A stretch of DNA of 64,000 bases from Fusobacterium massiliense (GTDB lineage Bacteria; Fusobacteriota; Fusobacteriia; Fusobacteriales; Fusobacteriaceae). Location of the stretch: assembly GCF_900095705.1 (NCBI RefSeq), contig NZ_LT608327.1, positions 682,001-746,000 of the forward strand, read 5' to 3'. The notes beneath the pieces are model-generated. The model was given only the letters and a program-made list of their open reading frames with translations, searched no databases and was not told where the DNA came from. The translations under genes and the position numbers were made by a program. Positions 5,769 through 61,690 of this stretch are shown here, one piece after another; positions within the stretch are counted from its first letter, which is position 1, and each line of letters starts with the position of its first letter.

Positions 5769-5845
5769 ATAGCCCCGATGTCCGTATTAGTTCGAAGAGC
5801 CTGTGTTTATTGAGCTCGTAGAACTCATACGGCTATCAGGAGCTA
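5769..5845. repeat. Palindromic intergenic repeat, copy 2
   Basis: This near full-length copy has the outer stem changed to AGCCCC and GGAGCT, so both arms changed and pairing is preserved. It lies between two convergent genes, where it could also act as a bidirectional terminator. Confidence 0.88.
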
Positions 5846-9678: not shown

Positions 9679-9732
9679 TTTAATTCCTTTCACAATAAGA
9701 ATAAAGTATTTAATATTAATTCTTATTAAATA

Positions 9733-9810
9733 AAGTCTCTTGATAGCCGTATGAGTTCTACAAGCTCAATGAACACAAGCTCTTCGGACTAATATAGACG
9801 TCAGAGACTA
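9733..9810. repeat. Palindromic intergenic repeat, copy 3 (inverted)
   Basis: A full-length copy reading AGTCTCTTGATAGCCG to GACGTCAGAGACT, opposite in orientation to copies 1 and 2. The AT-rich tail ending TATACTTTCCTA follows at about 9825-9840. It lies between bioF and the downstream end of gmhA. Confidence 0.9.
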
Positions 9811-9850
9811 ATTTTCTTTATTTATTTTTATACTTTCCTATATAAAAAAA

Positions 9851-11527: not shown

Positions 11528-11556
11528 TTGACTTTTATCCATCATAATTATAGAAT
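11528..11556 (+). promoter_or_regulatory. Promoter of the decarboxylase/arginase-like fusion gene
   Basis: TTGACT (11528-11533) and TAGAAT (11551-11556) are separated by exactly 17 bp. A small palindrome, AATACATAGTATT, overlaps the -10 box and start region (11555-11567) and could be part of a LysR operator. The rest of the 324-bp divergent gap holds repeat copy 4. Confidence 0.65.
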
Positions 11557-11605
11557 ACATAGTATTTTAATTTATAGGGAAAATATAAAATTAAATAGAA
11601 ATATT

Positions 11606-11681
11606 AGTCTCTGACGTCCGTATTAGTTCGAAGAGCCTATATTTATTGAGCTCGTAGAACTCATACAGCTGTCAAGAGACT
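11606..11681. repeat. Palindromic intergenic repeat, copy 4
   Basis: Full-length forward copy (AGTCTCTGACGTCCG to GTCAAGAGACT), with the tail TAGGGAAAATATAAAATTAA on its left at about 11575-11594. It lies between a promoter and the start of the gene it serves, so it would be transcribed into that mRNA's leader. Confidence 0.9.
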
Positions 11682-11739
11682 TTATTTAAAATAATACAAT
11701 AATTTATATACATTTTACAATATAAAAGGAGGTAGATAT

Positions 11740-14091
11740 ATGTCAAAATTAGATCAAAATAAAACACCTTTATTTACTGTTTTGAAAGATGAATATGTTG
11801 GAAGAAACATTTTGCCTTTTCATGTTCCAGGACACAAAAGAGGTAAAGGGGTTGATCAAGAATTTTATAACTTTATGGGAGATGGTCCATTTTCAATGGA
11901 TGTAACAATTTTTAAAATGGTAGATGGTTTACATCATCCAAAAAGTTGTATAAAAGAAGCTCAAGAATTAGTTGCAGATGCCTATGGAGTTAAACATAGT
12001 TTTTTTGCTGTCAATGGAACTTCTGGTGCAATCCAAGCTATGATTATGTCTGTTGTTAAAGCTGGAGAAAAAATCTTAGTTCCTAGAAATGTTCATAAAT
12101 CTGTTTCTGCCGGAATTATATTATCAGGTTCTGAACCAGTTTATATGAACCCTGAAATTGATGAAAATTTAGGAATTGCTTTAGGAGTTAAACCTCAAAC
12201 AGTAGAGAACATGCTAAAACAAGATCCTGATATAGCTGCTGTACTTATAATTAATCCGACTTATTATGGAGTTGCTACTGATATTAAAAAGATTGCTGAT
12301 ATAGTTCATAGCTATGACATACCTCTTATTGTAGATGAAGCTCATGGACCACATTTGCATTTCCATGAAGATTTACCTGTATCAGCCGTTGATGCTGGAG
12401 CTGATATCTGTACTCAAAGTACTCATAAAATACTTGGAGCTATGACTCAAATGTCTCTTATACATGTTAATTCAGATAGAGTTGATGTTGAAAAAGTAAA
12501 ACAAATTTTAAGCTTATTACACACAACTTCTCCTTCATATCCTTTAATGGCATCTCTTGATTGTGCAAGAAGACAAATTGCTACTCAAGGTAGAGAATTA
12601 CTTACAAAAACTATTGAACTAGCTAGATATTTTAGAAGAGAAGCTAATAGAATACCTGGAATATATTGTTTTGGAGAAGAACTTATTGGAAAGGACGGTT
12701 TCTTTGCTTTTGACCCAACAAAAATTACTATTTCTGCCAAAGAATTAGGACTAAAAGGTGGAGAATTAGAAACTTTACTTGTTGATGATTATAATATTCA
12801 AATGGAACTTTCTGATTACTATAACACTTTAGGACTTGTAACTATTGGAGATTCTGAAGAAAGCATTAATAGACTTCTTGATGCACTAAAAGATATTAGC
12901 AAAAGATATTTTGGTAAAGGAAAAACTTTAGAAAAGAATTTTATAAAATTACCAGAAACTCCTGAATTAGTACAAATGCCAAGAGAAGCATTTTATAGTG
13001 AAAAAAATAAAGTTTTATTCAAAGAAAGTGTGGGAAAAATCTCTGGTGAAATGATAATGGCTTATCCTCCTGGTATCCCAATAATTATTGCAGGGGAAAG
13101 AATCACTCAAGAAGTTATTGATCATATTGAAGAATTAAAAGAAGCAGACTTACATATTCAAGGAATGGAAGATCCTGAACTAAAATATATTAATGTTATT
13201 GAAGAAGAAGATGCTATTTATTTATATACAGAAAAAATGAAAAACATTTTAATTGGAGTTCAAACAAATCTTGGGGCCAATAAAACTGGTACTGAGTTTG
13301 GTCCTGATGAACTTCTTCAATCTTACCCAGATACTTTTGATGAAATGGAATTAATTTCAGTTGAAAGACAAAAAGAAGATTTTAATGATAAAAAATTAAA
13401 ATTCAAAAATACTATTTTAAATACTTGTGAAAAAATTGCTAAAAGAGTTAACGAAGCTGTTATCGATGGATATAGACCTATACTTATCGGAGGAGACCAC
13501 TCTATATCTTTAGGAAGTATTGCTGGTGTTTCTCTTGAAAAAGAAATTGGTGTATTATGGGTAAGTGCTCATGGAGATATGAATACTCCTGAAAGTACAT
13601 TAACTGGAAATATCCATGGAATGCCTCTTGCTTTAGTTCAAGGTCTAGGAGATAGAGAACTTATCAACTGTTTCTATGAAGGAGCTAAAATTGATAGTAG
13701 AAATATTGTTATTTTTGGTGCTAGAGAAGTTGAAATAGAAGAAAGAGAAATTATAGAAAAAACTGGAGTAAAAATTGTTTATTATGATGAAATTTTAAGA
13801 AAAGGAATAGATAATGTTTTAGATGAAATTAAAGATTATCTAAAAGTTGACAATCTTCATATCAGTATAGATATGAATGTTTTTGACCCTGAAATTGCTC
13901 CGGGTGTTAGTATGCCTGTTAGAAACGGTATGACTTACGACGAAATGTTTAAATCATTAAAGTTTGCATTTAAAAATTATTCTGTAACATCTGCTGATAT
14001 AACAGAATTTAACCCATTAAACGATATTAATGGAAAAACTGCTGAACTTGTTGATGAAATAGTTCAATATATGACTAACCCTGATTATTAA
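11740..14091 (+). CDS. Orn/Lys/Arg decarboxylase fused to an arginase/agmatinase-like domain
   Basis: This is a 783-residue fusion. Residues 1 to about 480 form a fold-I PLP decarboxylase of the Orn/Lys/Arg group: PFHVPGHKRG, AVNGTSGAIQAM, DEAHGPHLHF and the PLP lysine K230 in STHKILGAM, then MAYPPGIPIIIAGE. Residues about 500-783 form an arginase-family domain: IGGDHSISLG (H587), SAHGDMNTP (609-617), HISIDMNVFDPEIAPG and ITEFNP. Arginases have Asp where this protein has S609 and N713, so two Mn ligands, one of them bridging, are missing and hydrolysis is doubtful. A strong ribosome binding site (GGAGG) precedes ATG 11740. The fusion suggests polyamine formation from arginine or ornithine, with the second domain either a weak hydrolase or a regulatory part. 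A divergent LysR gene is the likely regulator. Confidence 0.9.
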   Translation: MSKLDQNKTPLFTVLKDEYVGRNILPFHVPGHKRGKGVDQEFYNFMGDGPFSMDVTIFKMVDGLHHPKSCIKEAQELVADAYGVKHSFFAVNGTSGAIQAMIMSVVKAGEKILVPRNVHKSVSAGIILSGSEPVYMNPEIDENLGIALGVKPQTVENMLKQDPDIAAVLIINPTYYGVATDIKKIADIVHSYDIPLIVDEAHGPHLHFHEDLPVSAVDAGADICTQSTHKILGAMTQMSLIHVNSDRVDVEKVKQILSLLHTTSPSYPLMASLDCARRQIATQGRELLTKTIELARYFRREANRIPGIYCFGEELIGKDGFFAFDPTKITISAKELGLKGGELETLLVDDYNIQMELSDYYNTLGLVTIGDSEESINRLLDALKDISKRYFGKGKTLEKNFIKLPETPELVQMPREAFYSEKNKVLFKESVGKISGEMIMAYPPGIPIIIAGERITQEVIDHIEELKEADLHIQGMEDPELKYINVIEEEDAIYLYTEKMKNILIGVQTNLGANKTGTEFGPDELLQSYPDTFDEMELISVERQKEDFNDKKLKFKNTILNTCEKIAKRVNEAVIDGYRPILIGGDHSISLGSIAGVSLEKEIGVLWVSAHGDMNTPESTLTGNIHGMPLALVQGLGDRELINCFYEGAKIDSRNIVIFGAREVEIEEREIIEKTGVKIVYYDEILRKGIDNVLDEIKDYLKVDNLHISIDMNVFDPEIAPGVSMPVRNGMTYDEMFKSLKFAFKNYSVTSADITEFNPLNDINGKTAELVDEIVQYMTNPDY

Positions 14092-14108
14092 AATTTATAA
14101 AATTATAA

Positions 14109-14184
14109 AGTCTCTTGACAGCCGTGTGAGTTCTATGAACTCAATAAATACATGTTCTTCAAACTAATACGGATGTCAGAGACT
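14109..14184. repeat. Palindromic intergenic repeat, copy 5 (inverted)
   Basis: AGTCTCTTGACAGCCGTGTG to GATGTCAGAGACT, between the end of the fusion gene and the end of the hsdR relic. It may double as a terminator for either. Confidence 0.9.
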
Positions 14185-14208
14185 ATTTTTTTGTTATTTA
14201 TTTTTAAA

Positions 14209-18399: not shown

Positions 18400-18711
18400 C
18401 TAATATTTTAAAAATTATAGTCAGTTGCTAATAATTTCATTAACTCCTCATCATGTTTATATTTAACTTCTGACTTATCATCAAAAATCATAACTGCTCC
18501 ATTTTTAGTATTATATGGTAACCACTTTGGTAAGCCTTTCACATTAGGATTTCCTATTCTTGCAAAATTTATCCAAGCTTGACTTACTTTATCTGCTAAT
18601 TTATAAGCTTCTTTTTCTCTACCTTTTATAAGTCCTTCAATCTTATCTATATTATTAAATACAAATGGAATTTCTGCTGTGTGGAAAGACATTGCCATAC
18701 CCTCAACCATA
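18400..18711 (-). pseudogene. Duplicated 3' fragment of the carboxylesterase gene
   Basis: This 312-bp segment repeats 19700-20011 with only a handful of differences (about 99 percent identity by eye). It carries the last 100 or so codons of the type B carboxylesterase (MVEGMAMSFHTAEIPFVFNN to DYNF), but nothing before them. It has no catalytic serine and is not expected to function. Together with the complete gene it forms a direct repeat flanking the acetyl-esterase-like gene. Confidence 0.9.
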
Positions 18712-19707: not shown

Positions 19708-21381
19708 TTAGAAATTATAGTCAGGTGCTAATAATTTCATTAACTCCTCATCATGTTTATATTTAACTTCTGACTTATCATCAAAAATCATAACTGCTCC
19801 GTTTTTAGTATTATATGGTAACCATTTTGGTAAGCCTTTCACATTAGGATTTCCTGTTCTTGCAAAATTTATCCAAGCTTGACTTACTTTATCTGCTAAT
19901 TTATAAGCTTCTTTTTCTCTACCTTTTATAAGTCCTTCAATCTTATCTATATTATTAAATACAAATGGAATTTCTGCTGTGTGGAAAGACATTGCCATAC
20001 CCTCAACCATTGGATTATCCCAAGCAAAAATATAACTATATACAGGAGCTCCATTTTGCTCTGCTTTCAATCTAGTTGTTTTAAATGTTTGTTTTCTTAA
20101 TAAGCTTTCAACATAAAGTGCATCTGTTTCTTTTCTATTAGGGTAAGCCTTTTTAAATTCTTTTGCTATTGCTTCTGCTCTATCACCATATTTTTCTTCC
20201 ATTTTTTTTCTTAATTCTGTATTAGTCATCTTATTTTTATTTTCAACTTTATTATTTGATAGTACAAATGGCATTGTTTCCCATTCAGTTAAGTTAGTAC
20301 CTATCAATAAAGGAATATCTCTTGATTGTTCTGAATATTTTTCTCCAACAGGTTCTACAGGAATATAGCTATCCAATTTAGGTGCCCAGCCAAGTCCTGG
20401 TTGTCCTGTTAAAACATTTTTATAACCTTGTTCTTCAGCAGTTTTTGATAATGCTTTATTTGTTGCTTCCATAAGTTTTTCATAAGGTATTTTTTGAATT
20501 TCATCAATATTTGAAGCATTTAATCCTAAATTTTCTAAAGTTAATTCTGCAACTCTTCTAGTAGCTTTTTCTGGTAAAAGTGTCATTCCCATTTTTTCTA
20601 CTGCTCCACTTTCAGATATAGCTTTGTGGAATAAACCTTTTGCAGCTGGTGTTGCCATAAGAGTTAAAACTTTTGCTCCTCCTCCTGACTCTCCAAATAT
20701 AGTTACATTATTAGGATCTCCTCCAAATTCTTCTATGTTATCTCTTATCCATTCAAGAGAAGCAACTAAATCCATAATTCCAGCATTGGCAGAATTTTTA
20801 TATTTTTCTCCATAAGCTGATAAATCTAAGAAACCTAGTGAATTTAATCTATGATTTACAGAAACTACTACTACATCTCCTTTTTTACTTAAATTTTTTC
20901 CATCAAAAATATAATTTTCAGCAGATGAACCGCTACTAAAACCACCTCCATGTAACCATACCATTACTGGTCTTTTCTTTCCATCTTTTATACCAGGAGT
21001 CCATATATTTAAGTTATGAGAATTTTCACTCATCTCTAATTTAGGTCCTGTAAACCAACCTCCACTTGAAACCATACTCTCACCTTGTGAAAAATATGTT
21101 CCAAAAGTTACAGTTTGTTTAATACCATTCCATTTTTCTACTTTTTTAGGTGCCATAAATCTTTCGGCTCTTGCATAAGGTACACCTAAGTAAGTATATA
21201 TTTCATCTTGAATAAATCCTTGTATTTTTCCACTTTCTGTTGTAGCTATTGTATTAGTATTTTGATTTACAGTATTTTCAATTTTTTTAACTACATTTTT
21301 ATTTTCATTTGTTTCAGAAAATAATAAATTTCCAGTTCCAATTTGTAATAAAAATAAAGCTACTAATAACATTTTTTTCAT
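19708..21381 (-). CDS. Exported type B carboxylesterase (PnbA family)
   Basis: This 557-residue esterase has a signal peptide (MKKMLLVALFLLQIGTGNLL, then FSE). It shows the family's GKIQGF start, VMVWLHGGGFSSGSS oxyanion hole, and NVTIFGESGGGAKVLTLMA with the catalytic serine. The acid is probably in the YSEQS-to-TNLTEWE region and the histidine in MSFHTAEIPFVF. It probably hydrolyses esters in the periplasm. The substrate is unknown. It lies 36 bp after an exported flavodoxin gene and is probably co-transcribed with it. Its 3' end is duplicated 1.3 kb downstream. Confidence 0.92.
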   Translation of the reverse strand: MKKMLLVALFLLQIGTGNLLFSETNENKNVVKKIENTVNQNTNTIATTESGKIQGFIQDEIYTYLGVPYARAERFMAPKKVEKWNGIKQTVTFGTYFSQGESMVSSGGWFTGPKLEMSENSHNLNIWTPGIKDGKKRPVMVWLHGGGFSSGSSAENYIFDGKNLSKKGDVVVVSVNHRLNSLGFLDLSAYGEKYKNSANAGIMDLVASLEWIRDNIEEFGGDPNNVTIFGESGGGAKVLTLMATPAAKGLFHKAISESGAVEKMGMTLLPEKATRRVAELTLENLGLNASNIDEIQKIPYEKLMEATNKALSKTAEEQGYKNVLTGQPGLGWAPKLDSYIPVEPVGEKYSEQSRDIPLLIGTNLTEWETMPFVLSNNKVENKNKMTNTELRKKMEEKYGDRAEAIAKEFKKAYPNRKETDALYVESLLRKQTFKTTRLKAEQNGAPVYSYIFAWDNPMVEGMAMSFHTAEIPFVFNNIDKIEGLIKGREKEAYKLADKVSQAWINFARTGNPNVKGLPKWLPYNTKNGAVMIFDDKSEVKYKHDEELMKLLAPDYNF

Positions 21382-31129: not shown

Positions 31130-31205
31130 AGTCTCTGACGTCCGTATTAGTTTGAAGAGCCTGTGTTCATTGAGCTCGTAGAACTCATACGGCTGTCAAG
31201 AGACT
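31130..31205. repeat. Palindromic intergenic repeat, copy 6
   Basis: Full-length forward copy upstream of hsdM. Here the tail lies on the right-hand side, ending TATACTTTCCTA at about 31224-31236, showing that either arm can carry the tail. Confidence 0.92.
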
Positions 31206-37097: not shown

Positions 37098-37170
37098 AGT
37101 TGACGTCCGTATTAGTTCGAAGAGCCTGTATTCATTGAGCTCGTAGAACTCATACGGCTGTCAAGAGACT
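37098..37170. repeat. Palindromic intergenic repeat, copy 7
   Basis: Forward copy lacking the first few bases of its left arm. A tail copy follows on the right (about 37176-37200) and another, from the deleted remnant, precedes it. Left of this pair, 36872-37045 is AT-rich and I see nothing in it. To the right lies the promoter at 37272. Confidence 0.9.
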
Positions 37171-37271
37171 AATTTTAATATTTAAAATTATACTTTCTTA
37201 TATAATAAAAAATCAATTTATAATGTTGCACTTAATATAAATATATACAAAATAATATCTAATTTATTTAG

Positions 37272-40617: not shown

Positions 40618-40654
40618 ATTTTATAGGAAAGCATAAAATCAAATAACAAAAATT

Positions 40655-40730
40655 AGTCTCCAACGTCCGTATTAGTTCGAAGAGCCTGTGTTCATTGAGC
40701 TCGTAGAACTCATACGGCTGTCAAGAGACT
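40655..40730. repeat. Palindromic intergenic repeat, copy 8
   Basis: Forward copy (AGTCTCCAACGTCCG to GTCAAGAGACT) with the tail TAGGAAAGCATAAAATC on its left. It lies between convergent genes. Confidence 0.92.
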
Positions 40731-40746
40731 TTTCTTATTTAATATA

Positions 40747-46278: not shown

Positions 46279-46319
46279 ATTCATTCTACAGGAAAGTATA
46301 AAAATAAACATCAAAAATT

Positions 46320-46395
46320 AGTCTCTGACGTCCGTATTAGTTCGAAGAGCCTGTGTTCATTGAGCTCGTAGAACTCATACGGCTGTCAGGAGACT
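46320..46395. repeat. Palindromic intergenic repeat, copy 9
   Basis: Full-length forward copy with the tail AGGAAAGTATAAAAATAAAC on the left (46290-46309), between the terminator and the end of crr. Confidence 0.93.
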
Positions 46396-46472
46396 TTTTT
46401 ATATTTTGAAAAAAACTCTTTTTATTCTTTTTATAAATTTTTATACACTTAATAAAAATTTTACTTAAATTT

Positions 46473-49549: not shown

Positions 49550-49564
49550 TGTTATTATTTATTT

Positions 49565-49640
49565 AGTCTCTGACGTCTGTATTAGTTCGAAGAGTTTATA
49601 TTTATTGAACTAGTAGAACTCATGCGGCTGTCATGAGACT
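49565..49640. repeat. Palindromic intergenic repeat, copy 10
   Basis: Forward copy with several changes (AGTCTCTGACGTCTG to GTCATGAGACT). It stands inside the 313-bp space between the two outer-membrane genes. The rest of the space holds the terminator and a promoter. Confidence 0.88.
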
Positions 49641-49728
49641 TTATTTATTATCTTTATTATGTTTATTGTGTTTAATGTATTTAATATGTTCTGTTTTCGA
49701 CTTTTTTATAATATTTATTCTTAAATGC

Positions 49729-50555: not shown

Positions 50556-50631
50556 AGTCTCTTGACAGCCGTATGAGTTCTACGAGCTCAATGAACGTAG
50601 GCTCTTCGAACTAATACGGACATCAGAGACT
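50556..50631. repeat. Palindromic intergenic repeat, copy 11 (inverted)
   Basis: Full-length inverted copy with the tail TAGGAAAGTATAAAATTAAA on its left (50527-50546). An extra half-arm, TGTCAAGAGACTTTA, repeats at 50639-50653. It separates the outer-membrane gene from the convergent csoR-like gene. Confidence 0.93.
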
Positions 50632-50654
50632 TTATTTGTGTCAAGAGACTTTAT

Positions 50655-50930
50655 TTACCCCATATTAGAGAATCTTTCTATAGACTTTGCAAATTTTTCT
50701 ATAGTTTCATCTAATTCTCCGTTTTCAATTCCATCTTTTATACAATGTTTTATATGACCTTCAAGAATTATTTGTCCACATTTATGTAAAGCAGACTTTG
50801 CTGCATTAATTTGAGATAGAATATCTTCACAAGGAACATCTTCTTCTATCATTCTCTCTATAGCTTGTACTTGTCCACCAATTTTTCTAAGTCTTCTATG
50901 TAAATTATTAGAATCCATACATTGTTTCAT
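50655..50930 (-). CDS. CsoR/FrmR-family metal-sensing repressor
   Basis: This 91-residue all-helical protein shows HRRLRKIGGQVQAIERMIEE and DVPCEDILSQI. It also has ILEGHIKHCI, giving the Cys-His-Cys set used by CsoR to bind Cu(I); RcnR/FrmR members differ at these sites. That makes a copper sensor likely but not certain. No copper exporter is beside it. AGGAGG precedes ATG 50930. It follows murI by 17 bp. Confidence 0.9.
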   Translation of the reverse strand: MKQCMDSNNLHRRLRKIGGQVQAIERMIEEDVPCEDILSQINAAKSALHKCGQIILEGHIKHCIKDGIENGELDETIEKFAKSIERFSNMG

Positions 50931-57058: not shown

Positions 57059-57100
57059 ATTTTTCCTCCAATTTTTGTGCTTTCCTATAAATTAAATAAA

Positions 57101-57176
57101 TTCTCTTGACAGCCGTATGAGTTCTACAAACTCAATGAACACAGACTTTTTCGAACTAATATGGACGTCAGAGACT
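57101..57176. repeat. Palindromic intergenic repeat, copy 12 (inverted)
   Basis: TTCTCTTGACAGCCG to GACGTCAGAGACT. Tail-like sequences are on both sides (GCTTTCCTATAAATTAAATA on the left; TATTTAATTTTATACTTTAC on the right), which suggests the complete element is a longer palindrome with a tail on each arm. Confidence 0.9.
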
Positions 57177-57246
57177 AATTTTGCTATTTAATTTTATACT
57201 TTACTATAAAAATATAAAATACAATACTTACTAAAATTTATTTAAT

Positions 57247-59582: not shown

Positions 59583-59652
59583 ATTTTTCCTTCAGATTTT
59601 TAAATTTGATTAATTATGTTTATTATATCATAAAATTTTAATAAATAAATAA

Positions 59653-59731
59653 AATCCATTGACAACAGTCTGAATTTTACGAGCTCAATGAACATAACCT
59701 TTTTTACTATTTAATTTTATACTTTCCTATA
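59653..59731. repeat. Palindromic intergenic repeat, copy 13 (internally deleted)
   Basis: TTGACAACAGTCTGAATTTT then ACGAGCTCAATGAACA, after which the second arm is missing and the sequence runs straight into the tail TATTTAATTTTATACTTTCC. It is the same kind of deletion as in the remnant at 37046. Confidence 0.75.
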
Positions 59732-59743
59732 AATAATAATCAA

Positions 59744-59817
59744 AGACTCCTGACAGCCGTATGACTCTTCTGAGCTCACCGAAATACTCTCCAGAATTAA
59801 TATGGACGTTGGAGACT
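59744..59817. repeat. Palindromic intergenic repeat, copy 14 (inverted, diverged)
   Basis: AGACTCCTGACAGCCGTATG to GACGTTGGAGACT. The outer stem has compensating changes (CTCC/GGAG). It lies in tandem with copy 13 in the 344-bp gap between aroK and the transporter, which otherwise holds only the terminator at 59855. Confidence 0.82.
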
Positions 59818-59854
59818 AATTTTCATATTAAATTTATATTTTTTTATAAAATAA

Positions 59855-61433: not shown

Positions 61434-61690
61434 TAAAAAAACTTTGCCTTTAAAACAGCAAAGTTAAAAATCATATTACAAAAATATATATTTAGCCTTT
61501 GATGTTCTAAGATAAGCTCAACTTTGTAATTATTTTTACAAAGACAGTTATATGCTTGTTCAACATATCCCCAGCAAATTTTTTGACAAATTCACTTCGG
61601 CATCTTTCCCTTTCCTTAATCTTCATAGACTTTCGGTCTCCAAATAAGTACTATTGATTAATGCAACCTCTTTTCTCAAAAACAAGTTTA
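61434..61690 (-). promoter_or_regulatory. Lysine riboswitch (L box) with terminator
   Basis: On the minus strand the aptamer shows its conserved landmarks in order: AGAGGTTGC, AAGTA-like AGTACTTATT, GGAGACCGAAAGTC, GGGAAAGATGCCGAAGTGA and TTGCTGGGG. The closing stem P1 pairs GAGAAAAG with CTTATCTT. An intrinsic terminator follows, AACTTTGC/GCAAAGTT (61465-61440), then seven T. A segment of the aptamer 3' side, CAAAGTT (61526-61520), can pair with the 5' side of the terminator as an antiterminator, so lysine binding should favour termination (OFF switch). Confidence 0.93.

What the first reader, a model, noticed from the sequence alone, without database searches (positions are those of the whole stretch)
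11740..14091. Decarboxylase fused to an arginase-like domain that has lost two Mn ligands
Seen: the N-terminal half has an intact PLP decarboxylase site (K230), but the arginase domain has Ser609 where arginases have the bridging Asp (DAHxD) and Asn713 where they have the second Asp of DxD. H587, H611, D613 and D711 remain. Known: these Asp residues hold the two manganese ions. Inferred: the second domain may be a ligand-sensing or structural module (pseudo-arginase) that tunes polyamine formation, or it may bind one metal only. The usual name agmatinase could be wrong.
Basis: partly seen in the sequence, partly recalled or inferred. Interest (0 to 1): 0.66.

Follow-up and report, generated by a model that had tools for sequence, protein, structure and literature searches.

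The report
Ornithine decarboxylase carrying a dead arginase

Summary
Window 11740-14091 (+) encodes a 783-aa ornithine decarboxylase (ODC) fused to an arginase domain. Ser609 and Asn713 replace the two manganese-binding Asp residues that are invariant in all 46 fused relatives with an intact site.

It is already known. Li 2021 (PMC8503589) reported the fusion, its ODC activity and the Ser/Asn changes. Xu 2025 (PMC12826042) names Ser609 and Asn713, calls the arginase non-functional (citing Mothersole 2022, Biochemistry) and shows that the ODC half alone restores growth. A PDB entry (8d27, "Arginase") is 90.5% identical to the domain.

What I add is modest:
1. Two more active-site Asp (663 and 665) became Glu in the same three-genome clade.
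2. Two other fusions (L050, L060) lost metal ligands separately.
3. ODCs without the arginase domain are sister to the inactive-domain clade, so one lineage probably deleted what the other kept.
4. The inactive domain is still under purifying selection (dN/dS about 0.04-0.14) but evolves about 1.9 times as fast as the ODC half, against 1.07 in intact lineages.
5. Two congeners carry a separate, intact arginase; the window genome does not.

The "agmatinase" name is indeed wrong. A sensing role is unproven.

The parts
11740..14091 (+). oda: fused ornithine decarboxylase / inactive arginase-like protein, 783 aa
   Evidence: ORF; Pfam; F. nucleatum oda is also a 783-aa protein (PMC12826042)
11764..13170 (+). 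AAT-fold ODC region (residues 9-477: OKR_DC_1 plus OKR_DC_1_C)
   Evidence: Pfam E 5.9e-90 and 8.4e-10
12427..12429 (+). Lys230, PLP lysine of the ODC domain
   Evidence: S-x-H-K motif; invariant in 51 of 51 fusions
13246..14070 (+). Arginase-fold domain (residues 503-777), metal site lost
   Evidence: PF00491 E 5.5e-62; 90.5% identical to PDB 8d27_A
13564..13566 (+). Ser609 in place of the bridging Mn ligand Asp (DAHxD)
   Evidence: Asp in 46 of 46 intact fusions, Ser in the three-genome clade
13876..13878 (+). Asn713 in place of the second Asp of DxD
   Evidence: Asp in 46 of 46 intact fusions, Asn in the three-genome clade
13726..13734 (+). Glu663 and Glu665 in place of two conserved Asp (human arginase D181 and D183 by motif; numbering from memory)
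   Evidence: Asp in 46 of 46 intact fusions, Glu in the three-genome clade
13498..13500 (+). His587, retained metal ligand
   Evidence: invariant
13570..13578 (+). His611 and Asp613, retained metal ligands
   Evidence: retained
13870..13872 (+). Asp711, retained metal ligand
   Evidence: invariant
11528..11556 (+). promoter-like TTGACT-17-TAGAAT; TTGACT-type boxes also stand upstream of several relatives
   Evidence: consensus match only; upstream listing
11727..11732 (+). AGGAGG ribosome-binding site
   Evidence: seen in sequence

Best explanation
The gene is the Fusobacterium oda gene. Its N-terminal half is a working ancestral-form (AAT-fold) ornithine decarboxylase that makes putrescine. 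Its C-terminal half is an inactive arginase. In the family's ancestor the fusion probably ran arginine to ornithine to putrescine in one protein. In the lineage of the window species the arginase half lost the two Mn-binding aspartates, and two further pocket aspartates became glutamate, so it no longer binds the manganese pair or cuts arginine, and ornithine must come from elsewhere. The fold has been kept, most likely as a structural part of the protein. Shown here: the substitutions, their confinement to this clade and the purifying selection. Shown by others for close relatives: ODC activity and a non-functional arginase. Inferred: the ancestral two-step function and the reason the dead domain is kept.
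For: Domain hits; ligand table across 51 fusions; the same changes in a solved chain, 8d27_A, 90.5% identical. Published work on close homologues: the ODC activity of the F. nucleatum fusion and the Ser/Asn replacement (PMC8503589); Ser609 and Asn713 named, arginase non-functional, the ODC half alone restores putrescine-independent growth (PMC12826042). The window genome has no other arginase-type enzyme: its only other PF00491 protein is a 318-aa one on another contig. No AdoMet decarboxylase, spermidine synthase or arginine deiminase match was found in it, consistent with putrescine as the end product and external ornithine as the source. Pairwise dN/dS of the inactive domain is 0.036-0.136, so it is not drifting freely.
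Against: No assay was run here. Four of six metal ligands and the motif His and Glu (H626, E756) remain, so weak single-metal binding is not excluded by sequence alone. dS is near saturation (0.8-1.4), so the selection estimate is rough. I could not read Mothersole 2022 itself, only its title and what later papers say of it. The searches for polyamine and arginine genes used three family models only.
Confidence: 0.93

Rival explanations
1. The inactive arginase pocket has become a ligand-sensing regulatory site that binds ornithine, arginine or putrescine and tunes the decarboxylase.
For: The pocket changes are concentrated: of 88 arginase positions at least 95% conserved in intact fusions, only 7 changed in all three clade members, and 4 of those 7 are pocket Asp residues (hypergeometric p about 0.006 with 12 positions taken as active site). 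H626, E668 and E756 are kept, and selection persists. oda transcript rises when putrescine is depleted (abstract of PMC12826042), so some feedback exists, although that is at the RNA level.
Against: The isolated ODC half had activity similar to the whole protein in yeast extracts (PMC8503589) and restored growth of the oda mutant (PMC12826042). A sister lineage does without the domain altogether.
Confidence: 0.12
2. The domain binds one metal ion and keeps a weak or different hydrolase activity.
For: H587, D613 and D711, three of the four ligands of one arginase metal site, are intact, as is H611.
Against: PMC12826042 states that metal binding and activity are eliminated in the F. nucleatum protein. 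Both Asp of the metal pair and both pocket Asp changed in the same clade.
Confidence: 0.05
3. The domain is simply decaying and will be lost, as in the sister lineage.
For: It evolves about 1.9 times as fast as the ODC half, against 1.07 on intact branches. Domain-less ODCs (L082, L083) are sister to this clade (SH-aLRT 98). L050 and L060 show separate inactivations.
Against: It is still an open, in-frame, full-length domain in all three genomes, with dN/dS well below 1.
Confidence: 0.3

Closest known systems
Oda of Fusobacterium nucleatum (ODC/arginase fusion; Li 2021 PMC8503589, Mothersole 2022, Xu 2025 PMC12826042)
   Same: Same length (783 aa), same fusion, same Ser609 and Asn713; arginase domain 90.5% identical to PDB 8d27_A
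   Different: Only ordinary divergence (about 9% in the arginase domain) from the solved chain
Intact ODC/arginase fusions of other Fusobacteriaceae (46 in this survey)
   Same: Same architecture and homologous along the whole length
   Different: They keep all six metal ligands and D663 and D665; none was assayed here
Standalone ancestral-form ODC of Fusobacterium necrophorum (PMC8503589) and the domain-less ODCs L082 and L083
   Same: Same decarboxylase family; L082 and L083 are sister to this clade in the ODC tree
   Different: No arginase domain
Arginase-like protein of Trypanosoma brucei and MetCb of metformin hydrolase (both discussed in PMC11271267)
   Same: Arginase-fold proteins that lost the binuclear metal site
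   Different: Not fused to a decarboxylase; MetCb supports a catalytic partner of the same fold

Membership tests
Fusobacteriaceae ODC/arginase (Oda), inactive-arginase clade | AAT-fold decarboxylase fused N-terminally to an arginase domain | tested here: met
Fusobacteriaceae ODC/arginase (Oda), inactive-arginase clade | Ser and Asn in place of two Mn-binding Asp, at 609 and 713 | tested here: met
   positions as named in PMC12826042
Fusobacteriaceae ODC/arginase (Oda), inactive-arginase clade | Falls with relatives bearing the same changes in a tree | tested here: met
   ODC-domain tree, clade support 99; 90.5% identity to 8d27_A
Arginase (RocF) | Arginase fold family match | tested here: met
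   PF00491 E 5.5e-62
Arginase (RocF) | All six binuclear Mn ligands (H, DxHxD, DxD) | tested here: not met
   D to S at 609, D to N at 713
Arginase (RocF) | NCBIfam TIGR01229 curated cut-off of 227.6 bits | tested here: not met
   202.5 bits for the isolated domain
Arginase (RocF) | Hydrolyses arginine | not testable with these tools
   Reported non-functional for F. nucleatum (PMC12826042, citing Mothersole 2022)
Agmatinase (SpeB) | TIGR01230 cut-off of 174.3 bits | tested here: not met
   82.3 bits
Ancestral-form AAT-fold ornithine decarboxylase | OKR_DC_1 domain with intact PLP lysine and no N-terminal receiver domain | tested here: met
   Pfam match starts at residue 9; K230 invariant
Ancestral-form AAT-fold ornithine decarboxylase | Prefers ornithine over lysine and arginine | not testable with these tools
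   ODC activity shown for F. nucleatum fusions in PMC8503589

The most novel reading that the evidence does not exclude
The inactive arginase pocket, remodelled at four aspartates rather than decayed at random, is a binding site for ornithine, arginine or putrescine and regulates or organises the decarboxylase assembly in this clade.
Probability: 0.12. Interest if true: 0.5.

Novelty: already known. Interest (0 to 1): 0.2.

Why it matters
The finding corrects a misleading database-style name and shows that this Fusobacterium makes putrescine but should not be credited with arginase or agmatinase activity. That inference was already made for F. nucleatum in print. What stays open is why the dead domain is kept; the sister lineage that lacks it offers a natural comparison.

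Tried and rejected
1. AlphaFold2 on the full protein with seven sequences gave mean pLDDT 41, pTM 0.29: unusable, so nothing was drawn from it.

2. A leader RNA controlling oda: window 11600-11690 folds strongly (z -5.4). It proved to be one copy of a dispersed repeat, with 13 intergenic sites in the window and 40 strong matches scored in the genome, absent from 30 relatives; Rfam has no match. Rejected as a gene-specific riboswitch.

3. Ligands supplied by neighbouring residues: none visible in the alignment.

4. Fusions outside the family: the Clostridia, Orenia, Fusibacter and Peptostreptococcaceae hits (L010-L013) are separate decarboxylase and ureohydrolase genes, not fusions.

5. Mothersole 2022 and the T. 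brucei paper are not held in the library.

Full report
What is there. The ORF at 11740-14091 (+) encodes 783 aa. Pfam places an Orn/Lys/Arg decarboxylase major domain at 9-373, its C-terminal domain at 398-477 and an arginase domain at 503-777. The gene is transcribed away from a LysR-like regulator gene upstream (my reading of its sequence) and is not in an obvious operon; F. nucleatum oda is described as monocistronic (PMC12826042).

In 51 fused proteins from Fusobacteriaceae genomes, Lys230 and the other decarboxylase motif residues I checked are present in all, apart from one S266N in an intact fusion. In the arginase half, D609, H611, D613, D711 and D713 are invariant in 46 fusions; the window protein has S609 and N713 and keeps H587, H611, D613 and D711. 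Both other genomes held for the genus have the same two changes. PDB chain 8d27_A, named Arginase, has them too and is identical at 258 of 285 positions.

It is published. Li et al. 2021 (PMC8503589) reported that the F. [quoted passage not shown] Xu et al. [quoted passage not shown] 2022, Biochemistry, doi 10.1021/acs.biochem.2c00197), and show that the ODC portion alone, but not the arginase portion, restores growth without putrescine. I could not open the 2022 paper. From memory, it reports the crystal structure of the domain without metal and the absence of the changes outside oral species; I mark that as recollection, not a test.

What this survey adds. (a) Two more conserved aspartates, 663 and 665, became glutamate in the same clade. 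Of 88 arginase positions conserved in at least 95% of intact fusions, 7 changed in all three clade members, and 4 of the 7 are pocket aspartates. With 12 positions counted as active site the hypergeometric p is about 0.006; the choice of 12 is mine, so this is a guide only. (b) L050 (D609G, H626N) and L060 (D609G, H611R, D613G, D713G, H626N and more) lost metal or catalytic residues in other genera. The ODC-domain tree needs three separate changes for the inactive state. (c) Domain-less ODCs L082 and L083 group with the inactive-domain clade (SH-aLRT 98) inside the fusions, so the arginase domain was probably deleted there; loss of function in their common ancestor would explain both, but that is inference. 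(d) Pairwise dN/dS of the inactive domain is 0.036-0.136; its branch lengths are 1.90 times those of the ODC half within the clade, against 1.07 over the other branches. The domain is constrained but less so than when active. dS is close to saturation, so the absolute values are rough.

Metabolic setting. The window genome has one other PF00491 protein, a 318-aa protein on another contig. The two congeners each carry in addition a standalone arginase scoring 313.7 and 302.0 bits against the 227.6 cut-off of TIGR01229. None of the three genomes has an arcA-type arginine deiminase or AdoMet decarboxylase match, and the window genome has no spermidine synthase match. This agrees with the published view that ornithine comes from outside and that putrescine is the product (PMC8503589, PMC12826042).

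Name. Against NCBIfam the isolated domain scores 202.5 bits as arginase, 98 as formimidoylglutamase and 82.3 as agmatinase, under every cut-off. Arginase-like is the fair name.

Verdict. True, well read by the first-stage reader, and already known. The unsolved part is why the dead domain persists; the structural and decaying readings are more likely than a sensor, because the ODC half works alone.

Noticed in passing
window 11600-11690 and 12 other sites (268-350, 5777-5842, 9726-9815, 14105-14185, 31130-31205, 37101-37178, 40649-40732, 46314-46400, 49563-49647, 50556-50657, 57092-57182, 59646-59823): A roughly 85-base imperfect palindrome repeated at 13 sites in the window, all between the ORFs of 150 aa or more, in both orientations. 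The whole genome gave 350 first-look candidates, of which the 40 scored were all strong; none of 30 relatives, including two congeners, has it. Two copies bracket oda, one in its leader and one starting 14 bases after its stop. It looks like a species-specific dispersed element (REP- or MITE-like); Rfam has no match.
   Followed up: partly
L050 and L060: Two further ODC/arginase fusions in other genera have separately lost arginase metal or catalytic residues.
   Followed up: partly
L074 (1956-2891) and L075 (1953-2891): Congeners of the window genome carry a separate intact arginase as well as the inactive fused one; the window genome lacks it.
   Followed up: partly
L058 (516-1383, minus strand): An arginase domain of the fusion type occurs as a 289-aa ORF with no decarboxylase in the fetched stretch, which lies on a short contig (3,864 bases); a split gene or a contig-end effect was not distinguished.
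   Followed up: no
window 18408-18710 and 19708-21381: A 100-aa ORF is nearly identical to the C-terminus of the nearby 557-aa carboxylesterase-like protein, as if left by a partial duplication.
   Followed up: no
window 61506-61680 (minus strand): Lysine riboswitch, 94.1 bits against a gathering score of 30.
   Followed up: no
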